Shown: positions 5,533 to 8,942 of the stretch, piece after piece | How the letters are laid out: every line of letters begins with the position of its first letter | Position numbering within the stretch: position 1 is the first letter of the stretch | Source of the DNA: Struthio camelus | Lineage: Eukaryota > Chordata > Aves > Struthioniformes > Struthionidae | NCBI RefSeq assembly: GCF_040807025.1 | Contig: NC_090943.1 | Coordinates: 142,744,264-142,808,263 of the forward strand | Reading direction: 5' to 3' | Length of the DNA stretch: 64,000 bases | Notes under the pieces: model-generated | The model's input: only the letters and a program-made list of their open reading frames with translations | Told to the model about the DNA's origin: nothing | Database searches by the model: none | Made by a program: the position numbers and the translations under genes

Positions 5533-5850
5533 CAAAATGTAAAGGAATTTAGGATTTTAAAGTAAGATTATGGAGGCAGCTTTTCACGGTTTAATTATTT
5601 TATATTGGAGGCTGTTGAATGATGCATTTGGTGAGCTGATTGCTTTTCAGAGAGCATTAAAAGATTTAGTTGCTCCTTATTTCAAACATTTGGAAATTTT
5701 AGTGTTGGGTTTGAAGGAAGCTTCGGAGCAAATCTTGTCTGTTCTCGTTTGCTATCAGCTCGTTTCCTTGGTAGCTTGGGCTGTGTGGAAGGAATTGCGA
5801 CAGAATGTAATTATTTTGGATTTAAGCTTTATTGTAACTCTGACTGTTTT
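5533..5850 (+). pseudogene. MCM3-like exon, N-terminal region, frameshifted
   Basis: Frame starting at 5533 reads QNVKEF, like the MCM3 segment before the first helical region. From 5609 a second frame reads RLLNDAFGELIAFQRALKD, a near-continuous match to MCM3 RLLNNAFEELVAFQRALKD. From about 5687 the first frame resumes with QTFGNFSVGFEGSFGAN and then GCVEGIATEC, matching the MCM3 stretches around YVGLEGSFG and CVEGIVTKC at the start of the OB-fold. At least two shifts of frame are needed. Stop codons interrupt each single frame. Either the exon is dead, or single-base sequencing errors are present. A possible GTAAGT donor lies near 5911. Confidence 0.8.
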
Positions 5851-6773
5851 GTCTCTCAGCTGTATGAATAGCAATATGCCTTATTTGTCATTTTTTAATT
5901 TGCAACGGTAAGTATTAATATAACATTTTCGCTTTGCTCTGCCAGTGCCGCGTGTCATGTTGGGTCGCAGATCTCCAAGGAGAACGACTAATCCCAAGCT
6001 CGTGGCTGCGGTCAAGAGTCACCCTTGCTGTGCCAGCACAGGGGCTTAGGTGGAGAGTGGGCATCTCTGGAGGGACATCTGTTCACAAGCGGGTGTCTTT
6101 ATACACATCAGTGGATTAACGGGAAGTTAGAGTAACACAAACACTGAAATAATAATACAGGCAACTTCTAAGAGTGCTGTAGCACATCAGTGTTTCCTTC
6201 CTTGTTGTCCCATTCTGTGACGGTGACTGTAGGAGTTGCCATCTGTCCTCCTCATTTCCCTATGTGGGGGAATATCAAAATATTGCATATCCCAAGAGCA
6301 AACAGTTCTATTTGCAAGAGTGCAAAGATCGCATGAAAGGCATTTACAGGAAAATCAGCTTCTTGAGGAGACTGCACAGGAGGACTGAGCTGTTATAAAA
6401 ATATCTTTGCATCAACCTATCTTTGACTGACAACTGTTTTCCCAAGTCACTGCAAATCAAAATTGCAAATGGGCATGTCGGCAAACATAGTTTTCTTAAC
6501 TTCTCTCAGGACTGGCTTGAAATGAACTTGATACGAAATATGAGGGGTTGTTAGTGAATGGGTTGAAAAATTCTTGTCAGCATTGTTTCAAGTGTTATTA
6601 ATTCTGTTATAATTTTCTTCCATAATTAATACAAAAAACATCCATGCAGGCTTACTTTCATACTATATGAAAGCAAAAGTTCATTACCATCTGCTCTTTT
6701 TGGGATACTTAAGTACAGTGCTCTGAAACAACTTCCTCCAGATGTATCCTCGAAAGGGTCACGTAAAAATTGT

Positions 6774-6800
6774 GCTGTATATCCAACAAGGTTTAAAGAG
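6774..6800 (+). pseudogene. Possible MCM3-like scrap (weak)
   Basis: One frame reads AVYPTRFKE, resembling the MCM3 segment SVYPTKDEE that lies between the matched blocks. It is in the expected order and strand, but it is only nine residues long and no exon borders are visible. It may be chance. Confidence 0.2.
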
Positions 6801-8126
6801 CATTGCTAGCGAATGCCGTCAGGGCACTGTTTGATACCTTTACCTGGCGTAACCCACTCTAACATACTCGGCATGCTCGGGATGAGGCAAACGGGAGTCC
6901 GGCAGCGCAGCTGGGGTGGCTGGGTTTCAGCATCCAGGAGGGTCCTGGTGAAGCAGCAGCAGCTGGGCAGCGTCCTTGCACCACAGCTCTGAGTGCAGAT
7001 GTGGACTCCGGGGAGGAGAGCACGTCCGGAGGCAGCACAGGGCAGGCTTCAGGAGAACCTCGCTGCCCCCTCACCCCGGGGAAGCTTCAGATTTAGCACC
7101 CAAGTGTGCGATGAGGAACTTTAAGTGGGAATAAGGAGAAATTTCAAACCATCAGAGCAGTGAGGCCTGGATAGTTTCTCCTTAAGGATCCACTCCAGAA
7201 GATCTTGTTTTTTTGGAGCCAGAAACAGGGCTTGCCTGATGTCTGCCGCTCTCGGTGCCCAGTGGGGATGTCTGCTGCACTGTATATGGAGCTGCAGCTA
7301 ATCGTTTCCACCCTAATATCCCAACACTTCTGTGTCCTTTTGCCAAGTTTTTTCTCTTGTTATTTGGCTCTGGAGCCTCCCTAATGAAAGCCTGATTTTC
7401 ACTGAGTAGTCTTGCTGCTCTTCCGTTGACATCAACCCATACAGAAAGGCTCTTTGTGCATGGCTGGTGCAGATTCATGGCTTAGTGCTGACACTGGCAT
7501 GGCCAAATTCGGCACCAGAGAGAGCTTTCCAAAGCAGAGCTTTGCCTTACGTGTAGAAGTTGTTATATCTGAGGCAGAAGTAATCAAAATATGGAGGTCC
7601 ATTAGGAGTATTTGGGGCAAAATTGAGCCAGTTTAAGCTGGAATTTGATTAATTTATGAAATGGAAGATGTGCTTGGTCTGCCTGTGAGAGCTCAGCTGG
7701 GTCTCAGAGATCCAGCTCCTTCCAAGCTCAACTCCCATGCTTTTCCTTTCAGCACAGTGTGGTGAAGCACCGATTTACTTTCTTTTTAAGTTCTCTTGCC
7801 TAGGAGACAGGACCATGCCATGGCAGGTGGGCAGTATTGCTCACATGGAGATTTTAAATCGTATTCATTCTTTTCTCTAGATAATTCATATTGATTGTAC
7901 TCTCCCCTCCCCAAAGCATTTTCTTATGGCACTTCTGAATCGTCAGCTTCCTTACAAGCACTTCCCTTTGCAATTCTGGACCCTGTAAGCTAATGAATGA
8001 TCGATAGTTTTAGAAACTAGAAGCCAAAATGTTGTTTCCCTGCTTTCTGTTTCAAAAATTTGGGTTCTGAGATGATTACTTCTTCTGGCTGTGTGTGGTT
8101 TACAAGAGTTGTCTGAAGAGTGCTTA

Positions 8127-8190
8127 GAAGAGCGTCTTCTAAAAGCTGAAGTGTCTGATGAACCTGTTGAAGACAAAGCAAAAAAGGAGT
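8127..8190 (+). pseudogene. Possible MCM3-like scrap before the central exons (weak)
   Basis: The plus strand reads SDEPVEDKAKKE, resembling the MCM3 segment LDDDLVDKAKPGD that should directly precede the 8583 exon. Surrounding residues do not align cleanly and stop codons lie nearby. It is positionally consistent but too short to be sure. Confidence 0.25.
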
Positions 8191-8582
8191 TGTTCTGCCT
8201 TTCTTTCCTTCAAAGTTAGAAATGCCCCAACTCCAAAAGACGTTGTCTCCAAAATATGTATCTTTTGCTTCACAGGATACAGATATTGAGTCCACTAGTA
8301 TATAAGGGGGTAGAGAAGAGATTCCCAAAGCTGTGCTATGTATTTTCTACTTCTTTTGGATTCTGAAACTTCATTAAATCCTCTTTCAGTGCAGATTTTA
8401 CTCACTGAGCCATAATAAAACAGACAAATCTAATAATTTCTTTGAATTTGATTCTGCTTATACTTTCTCTTTCCTAAGCAGCTTTTTGTGTTATGAGACA
8501 ATAGTCCTATATGTATTTAGTAGTTAATCTATTTAATAGTTAATCTCGTGACATTTCTCTGCATCTGAAGAAAAATATCCAG

Positions 8583-8691
8583 GACAACAACATTGACTAA
8601 TATTATCAAACTGATGAGCAAAGAAATAGCACCCACATTCTCAGCTGATGATGTGGCAAAGATCAAGAAATTCTGCAAAGCTCAAACTAAA
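8583..8691 (+). pseudogene. MCM3-like exon ahead of the ATPase domain, open frame
   Basis: After an AG acceptor at 8581-8582 the exon reads one base plus 36 codons. It includes TNIIKLMSKE and FSADDVAKIKKF, close to MCM3 FSAEDIAKIKKF, and stops before a GTAAGT donor at 8692. The length of 109 bp gives phase 2 in and phase 0 out, which fits the next exon. The polypyrimidine tract before the acceptor is weak. No stop or frameshift is seen. Listed as part of the decayed MCM3-like locus. Confidence 0.8.
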
Positions 8692-8788
8692 GTAAGTTAT
8701 AAATTGTGCTAATACTGGCTAATGGATAATGAGATTCCATTCTAATGTTGGTAATGTGCAATGTAAGTGTTTCCTGTTTCTTAAATAG

Positions 8789-8942
8789 GATATCTTTGAC
8801 CATTTAAGCAAGTCTTTAACACCAAGCGTTCATGGCCATGAGTATATTAAAAAAGCCATTTTGTGTATGCTTCTTCGAGGTAATGAGAAAGTTCTCAACA
8901 ATGGGACACGCATTAAAGGAGACATCAATATCTTATTATTAG
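8789..8942 (+). pseudogene. MCM3-like exon entering the AAA+ ATPase domain, open frame
   Basis: Between a TAG acceptor and a GTAAGA donor the exon encodes 51 codons plus one base. DIFDHLSKSLTPSVHGHEY, KKAILCMLLRG and IKGDINILLLG match MCM3 DIFDQLAKSLAPSIHGHDY, KKAILCLLLGG and IRGDINILLIG. The next MCM3 exon would begin with the Walker A region (DPSVAKSQ); I could not find it downstream. The reading frame is intact and the exon phase (0 in, 1 out) is as expected for MCM3. Confidence 0.85.

What the first reader, a model, noticed from the sequence alone, without database searches (positions are those of the whole stretch)
5533..8942. Decaying MCM3 paralogue beside MEP1B
Exon-structured matches to MCM3 occur in the right order on the plus strand, one with frame breaks. 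The MCM2-7 genes are normally single copies in birds and mammals, while amphibians keep a second, zygotic MCM3. A relic at this locus may mark where an ancestral tetrapod second MCM3 stood and was lost. The divergence (IIKLMSKE, CKAQTK) is that of an old paralogue.
Basis: partly seen in the sequence, partly recalled or inferred. Interest (0 to 1): 0.85.

Follow-up and report, generated by a model that had tools for sequence, protein, structure and literature searches.

The report
Dead maternal MCM3 with surviving exons
Next to MEP1B this bird genome carries the wreck of a second MCM3 gene that frogs and fish still use in their eggs, and two of its exons have changed little while the rest rotted away, which suggests that they may have been put to a new use.

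Summary
Pieces of seven MCM3 exons (2, 3, 6, 7, 8, 10, 13; exon 5 doubtful) lie in order on the + strand from 3.3 to 15.9 kb, introns kept, between GAREM1 (upstream, +) and MEP1B (-). They are the relic of mcm3l, the maternal MCM3 of frogs, salamanders and ray-finned fish, not of the zygotic gene: exons 6+7 match Xenopus maternal MCM3 at 75/89 and this genome's own MCM3 at 59/89; a tree uniting relic and own MCM3 is rejected (p-AU 7e-6). No named amniote had a whole maternal-type protein among the 120 best hits.

The unexpected part is uneven decay. Exons 2, 8, 10 and 13 keep 12-23% of a living gene's median profile score, exon 3 about 60% with a broken frame. Exons 6 and 7 keep 82% and 90%, open frames and intact splice sites. 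The same exons stand in predicted proteins of godwit, falcon, alligator and sheep. Between falcon and this bird they match at 79/89, against 20/45 for neighbouring DNA. So they look constrained after the gene died, most likely as an exon-derived regulatory element; an 81-residue microprotein is not excluded. DNA of other species was not available.

The parts
3310..3430 (+). relic of mcm3l exon 2 (residues ~27-63), stops and small indels; ends approximate, profile hit 3334-3417
   Evidence: 14.2 bits, next place 1.1; 0 of 100 shuffles as high; DNA alignment to own MCM3 exon 2
5611..5806 (+). relic of mcm3l exon 3 (residues ~64-134), net 13 bases shorter than own MCM3 exon 3 in the alignment, so the frame is broken
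6926..7021 (+). possible trace of exon 5; doubtful
   Evidence: 4.8 bits in the expected interval, but 5 of 100 shuffles as high
8583..8691 (+). mcm3l exon 6, open frame, acceptor cag and donor gtaagt intact
8692..8788 (+). intron 6; its 3' part is as alike as the exon in one other fragment (17/19 residues read through)
   Evidence: P0128
8789..8942 (+). mcm3l exon 7, open frame, acceptor tag and donor gtaaga intact; ends just before the exon that carries Walker A
8614..8956 (+). candidate 81-codon frame: ATG 8614, exon 6, exon 7, then KSM and TAG (8954-8956), if intron 6 alone is removed; same KSM ending in alligator P0122 and in P0128
   Evidence: sequence, translation
11655..11751 (+). relic of exon 8 (P-loop region, residues ~357-389), 14 of 33 residues left
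   Evidence: 14.3 bits, next 5.7; 0 of 100
14207..14364 (+). relic of exon 10 (residues ~459-515), stop inside; profile hit 14245-14289
   Evidence: 9.9 bits, next 3.9; 1 of 100
15761..15900 (+). relic of exon 13; profile hit 15773-15823 (residues ~613-629), wider extent from a DNA alignment without a control
   Evidence: 7.3 bits, next 0.1; 1 of 100
28953..34350 (-). MEP1B (meprin beta), tail-to-tail neighbour; range spanned by the two ORFs tested; 26563-27027 looks like more of it, by eye

Best explanation
This is the unitary relic of mcm3l, the gene for the maternal MCM3 subunit of the replication helicase, lying between GAREM1 and MEP1B. Shown: its kind, its order, its kept introns, its death here (no readable ATPase exon, no other copy found in the genome), and the contrast between exons 6-7 and the other exons. 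Shown on read-through residues, not on DNA: in three other sources these two exons differ less from this bird than stretches next to them. Inferred: the gene died before the living birds compared here split, because exon 8 has decayed further than neighbouring DNA has diverged between them, and exons 6-7 with intron 6 were kept afterwards because the DNA itself does something. I think a cis-regulatory element born from dead exons is most likely, acting on a neighbour such as GAREM1. That last step is a guess from precedent; no regulatory data were seen.
For: Best match of every block is Xenopus maternal MCM3: 152 v 111 bits for exons 6+7 and 69 v 56 for exon 3, against the next MCM3 chains (that those are human is recalled). 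Identity 75/89 to frog maternal, 59/89 to own MCM3; AU test rejects relic plus own MCM3 as one clade, p 6.9e-6. Whole-genome search finds own MCM3 at C3:11542635-11553979 and the relic only here, best candidates scored. Relic score over median of living mcm3l: exon 2 21/90, exon 3 92/153, exon 6 81/98, exon 7 117/131, exon 8 21/118, exon 10 17/144, exon 13 15/122. The same exons in proteins of Limosa, Falco, Alligator and sheep. Exon against other aligned DNA: Falco 79/89 v 20/45, Anas exon 6 32/37 v 23/44, P0177 exon 6 30/37 v 25/45. Neutral simulation reached 79/89 in 0 of 4000 at 0.2 and 0 of 4000 at 0.3 changes per site. In P0128 intron 6 (17/19) is as alike as exon 7 (42/46), and the acceptor and start of exon 7 are inverted.
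Against: The other amniote fragments were found by likeness to exons 6-7, and a protein collection holds only open frames, so species in which these exons decayed would not show: both their likeness and their open frames are a biased sample. No DNA of another species was available, so coding and non-coding constraint could not be told apart. The stretches compared with the exons are few, short, and those that tblastn could align; P0128 has no neutral baseline. Relic scores of exons 6 and 7 (80.6, 117.4) lie below the lowest of 21 living genes (86.7, 123.9), so some decay or change is there too. In one search the five relics are one group in only 20% of 200 bootstrap trees, and a tree with relics and MCM3 together against maternal genes is not rejected (p 0.476). 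Sheep is one mammal and its locus was not checked. Exon 7 is damaged in P0128 and perhaps in duck, whose model skips its first half.
Confidence: 0.65

Rival explanations
1. Exons 6 and 7 are still translated: spliced to each other they give an 81-residue protein (ATG at 8614 to TAG at 8954-8956), a microprotein left from maternal MCM3, perhaps binding MCM partners through the piece in front of the ATPase core.
For: Open frames and intact splice sites in this bird; open frames in Limosa, Falco, Alligator and sheep; same KSM-stop ending in alligator and P0128.
Against: Open frames elsewhere are expected from a protein collection. Falcon reads DIKEDIN for RIKGDIN and sheep IHRHEY for IHGHEY, changes in stretches that are alike in the MCM3 and mcm3l sequences shown; P0128 has the acceptor and first codons of exon 7 inverted; intron 6 is as alike as the exon there. 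Falcon, godwit and sheep models do not end in KSM.
Confidence: 0.15
2. A plain dead gene with no present use. It was lost late and separately in bird, crocodile and mammal lines, and exons 6-7 survive in some species by chance or a low local mutation rate.
For: Death is clear here; the damage in P0128 and the odd duck model show that exons 6-7 also erode; other species were found through likeness. Old coding constraint explains much likeness to frog (codon position identity to own MCM3 0.75/0.90/0.48 in exon 7).
Against: Does not explain why exon 8, the most conserved of the compared exons in living genes, is nearly gone while exons 6-7 keep 82-90% of the score, nor Falco 79/89 v 20/45, nor 0 of 4000 in simulation.
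Confidence: 0.18
3. A duplicate of the species' own MCM3.
For: Same exon plan as MCM3.
Against: 59/89 identity to own MCM3, 75/89 to frog maternal; rejected, p 6.9e-6.
Confidence: 0.01
4. A living gene whose other exons are missing through misassembly.
For: None beyond the two intact exons.
Against: Other exons are present in place and order as wrecks, and the genome searches found no better copies.
Confidence: 0.01

Closest known systems
mcm3l / maternal MCM3 (Xenopus maternal mcm3, zebrafish mcm3l)
   Same: Sequence, exon plan, closest relatives; the gene this once was.
   Different: Living gene (807 residues in zebrafish) whose loss in the mother arrests the early embryo (PMC7179931, section 9 read); here dead.
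Exapted host-gene protein fossils (Frith 2022, PMC9004415)
   Same: Old coding pieces kept after loss of coding; the paper reports two candidates older than jawed vertebrates, function unknown (section 13 read; passages).
   Different: Here the parent gene, its place and other decayed exons are identifiable and frames are still open. 'mcm' does not occur in the main text held of that paper.
Exonic remnants after genome duplication in teleosts (Dong and others 2010; recalled, paper not held)
   Same: Exons of a lost gene copy kept as conserved regulatory DNA.
   Different: There after the teleost duplication; here in birds and perhaps other amniotes, after loss of an older paralogue.
Ordinary unitary pseudogene (such as GULO in primates)
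   Same: Single gene lost in place, introns kept.
   Different: Decay here is uneven, with two exons largely spared.

Membership tests
mcm3l (maternal MCM3) orthologue, as a pseudogene | sequence closer to maternal MCM3 of anamniotes than to MCM3 | tested here: met
   for exons 6+7 also the profile scores and the tree
mcm3l (maternal MCM3) orthologue, as a pseudogene | branches within the maternal group rather than between it and MCM3 | tested here: inconclusive
   one search puts relics on the maternal side of a 96/95 split from MCM3; one search does not reject relics plus MCM3 against maternal genes, p 0.476
mcm3l (maternal MCM3) orthologue, as a pseudogene | same chromosomal neighbours as in frog, gar or zebrafish | not testable with these tools
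   no genome of a frog or fish could be searched
mcm3l (maternal MCM3) orthologue, as a pseudogene | MCM ATPase core (Walker A) present | tested here: not met
   exon 8 reduced to 14/33 residues, no other copy found; fits a dead gene, so it is filed as a relic only
unitary pseudogene | introns kept, disabling changes, no intact copy found in the genome | tested here: met
exapted exon remnant / conserved non-coding element | slower change than neighbouring DNA after loss of the gene | tested here: met
   read-through residues of Falco, Anas and unnamed P0177, simulation; a sample biased by likeness, no DNA
exapted exon remnant / conserved non-coding element | no codon rhythm in the conservation | not testable with these tools
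   needs DNA of several species
exapted exon remnant / conserved non-coding element | enhancer or chromatin activity | not testable with these tools
   no functional data held
recent copy of own MCM3 | near identity to own MCM3 | tested here: not met
   59/89, AU p 6.9e-6

The most novel reading that the evidence does not exclude
When the maternal MCM3 gene died in the early amniote line, its exons 6 and 7 with the short intron between them were taken over for a new task, as a regulatory element or an 81-residue microprotein, and have been kept for some 300 million years in birds, crocodiles and at least one mammal while the other exons crumbled.
Probability: 0.37. Interest if true: 0.75.

Novelty: new member of a known kind. 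Interest (0 to 1): 0.57.

Why it matters
The egg-stage MCM3 is needed by the early zebrafish embryo, yet no whole protein of its type was seen in a named amniote. A relic in place shows that an ancestor of this bird had the gene, and gives a locus at which the time of loss can be read in birds, reptiles and mammals. The two spared exons sit beside dead sister exons of known parentage, so a shift from coding to another use can be tested base by base.

Tried and rejected
Zygotic identity of the relic: not supported. Recent copy of own MCM3: rejected. Exon 4 hit at 6711-6803 by tblastn: not among the best four of the profile search, dropped. Exon 5: kept only as doubtful. A known structured RNA in the spared exons: Rfam, asked for 3000-16500 at E up to 1, lists nothing there; its 11 hits all lie in a simple repeat at 10202-10283 and below gathering scores. 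MCM3 exons in the 20 kb upstream: none convincing. A DNA search for other copies of 8520-8960 did not complete; the protein search of the genome stands in for it. Synteny in frog could not be tested.

Literature: eight searches (zygotic MCM3, mcm3l, maternal MCM3, exonic remnants, MMCM3, two combined ones, zmcm3) showed no report of this relic in the titles and abstract openings listed; one search listed 10 of 605 papers, 15 of 22, one search found none. The library holds open-licence papers only. PMC2667178 (passages) knows two Mcm3 in Xenopus as a recent duplication; the tree here argues for an older one. PMC10854053 (term search) does not mention mcm3.

Full report
Place. The window is G000:C2:142744264-142808263 of a 1.45 Gb genome, a bird by its MCM3 (89-90% to several of the fetched bird MCM3 proteins). 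Two ORFs on the minus strand at 28953-29258 and 34030-34350 match meprin beta best. A CABIT-domain gene on the plus strand has an exon that ends 18.2 kb before the window; by its place next to MEP1B it is GAREM1 (gene order recalled from human). The MCM3 blocks lie between the two and point at MEP1B.

What the blocks are. Exons 6 and 7 (8583-8691, 8789-8942) are open, with intact splice sites. Against PDB chains they score 151.9 bits with Xenopus maternal MCM3 and 111 with the next MCM3 chains (human by recall); exon 3, two frames put together, scores 68.7 and 56. For Xenopus maternal MCM3 as query, 7991 candidates were scored and 120 listed: frogs, salamanders, gar, sturgeon, Polypterus and teleosts have the maternal type (mcm3l), and named amniotes appear only with MCM3, from rank 100 down. 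Own MCM3 lies on C3 with 17 exon matches; the relic showed no other copy among the best candidates scored.

More exons. With one profile per exon from 21 maternal-type proteins, a chosen part of the list, searched over the window and 20 kb upstream on both strands, the best hits of exons 2, 3, 6, 7, 8, 10 and 13 are collinear on the plus strand. Shuffled sequence reached the scores of exons 2, 8, 10, 13 and 5 in 0, 0, 1, 1 and 5 of 100 trials. So 7 of 17 exons are recognisable and one more is doubtful. DNA alignments to own MCM3 exons show indels in exons 2, 8, 10 and 13 and a net 13-base loss in exon 3.

Uneven decay. Relic score over the leave-one-out median of living mcm3l: exon 2 21/90, exon 3 92/153 (two frames added), exon 6 81/98, exon 7 117/131, exon 8 21/118, exon 10 17/144, exon 13 15/122 (for the decayed exons the piece found was scored). 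Exons 6 and 7 still lie below the lowest living gene (86.7 and 123.9). In living genes exon 8 is the most conserved of these, 0.98-1.00 between frog and salamander, gar or sturgeon; exon 7 has 0.92-0.98, exon 10 0.84-0.90, exon 6 0.81-0.86. The pattern of decay therefore does not follow the old constraint: exon 8 should be the easiest to see and is nearly gone.

Other amniotes. A search with the 92 residues of exons 6-7 found 43 proteins of 45 candidates: Limosa 91%, Falco 88%, Alligator 85%, sheep 76%; the sheep model starts 11 residues into exon 6. A third search found a duck model and P0177 among 14 proteins. By eye these proteins show no other mcm3l exon. Tails of the falcon and duck models and the upstream part of P0177 match window DNA at 9632-9775, 22093-22239 and 8367-8531, which places them at the same locus. 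The sheep locus was not checked. All were found by likeness and as open frames, so they are no fair sample of amniotes.

Constraint. Against the window, as read-through residues: Falco exons 6+7 79/89 v other DNA 20/45 (Fisher 1.2e-7), Anas exon 6 32/37 v 23/44 (0.0016; its partial exon 7 not counted), P0177 exon 6 30/37 v intron 5 25/45 (0.019); in P0128 exon 7 without its inverted start 42/46 and intron 6 17/19 do not differ. In a neutral simulation 79/89 was reached in 0 of 4000 runs at 0.2 and 0 of 4000 at 0.3 changes per site, while exon 8 with 14/33 left fits about 0.5. The other DNA (0.44-0.56 alike) fits about 0.3-0.45 for both branches together, so exon 8 should have died before these birds split; this rests on equal rates.

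Tree. On exons 6-7 (89 columns, 23 rows) relics form one group, 88/89, on the maternal side of a 96/95 split from MCM3 of own genome, human, turtle, crocodile, birds and a frog; the row meant as outgroup (P0164) fell on the maternal side, so the root is open. On exons 3+6+7 (160 columns, 22 rows, human left out) bird relics group at 97/94, but all five relics do so in only 20% of 200 bootstrap trees; relic plus own MCM3 is rejected, p 6.9e-6; relics plus all MCM3 against maternal genes is not rejected, p 0.476. Frog MCM3 groups with amniote MCM3 without the relic, 97/95, so the relic line left MCM3 before frogs and amniotes parted.

Function. Loss of mcm3l in zebrafish mothers arrests the embryo, and the authors take it for a cleavage-stage MCM subunit (PMC7179931, section 9); frog and zebrafish maternal MCM3 lack a nuclear localisation signal (PMC5295036, one passage). 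None of this can run from the relic, whose readable part stops before Walker A. Upstream of exon 6 the alligator model shows no likeness to this bird, but in P0128 the likeness spans intron 6, and there the acceptor and first codons of exon 7 are inverted. That leans towards use at the DNA level rather than protein. Host-gene fossils kept for unknown tasks are known in human (PMC9004415, section 13), so the kind is known and this is a new, unusually readable candidate.

Noticed in passing
window 8779-8811: Fragment P0128 from another genome reads this stretch on the opposite strand: a micro-inversion over the exon 7 acceptor, flanked in the window by the inverted repeat CTTAAAT/ATTTAAG; an assembly artefact is not excluded.
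   Followed up: partly
window 9632-9775 and 22093-22239: DNA that matches the tails of falcon and duck gene models named maternal mcm3; those models are partly non-MCM3 sequence.
   Followed up: partly
window 10202-10283: TATG-type simple repeat that gives sub-threshold Rfam microRNA hits on both strands.
   Followed up: no
window 8581-8604: The first eight codons of exon 6 carry most of this bird's own changes (RTTTLTNI for RTIMLANN in falcon and alligator).
   Followed up: no
   Followed up: no
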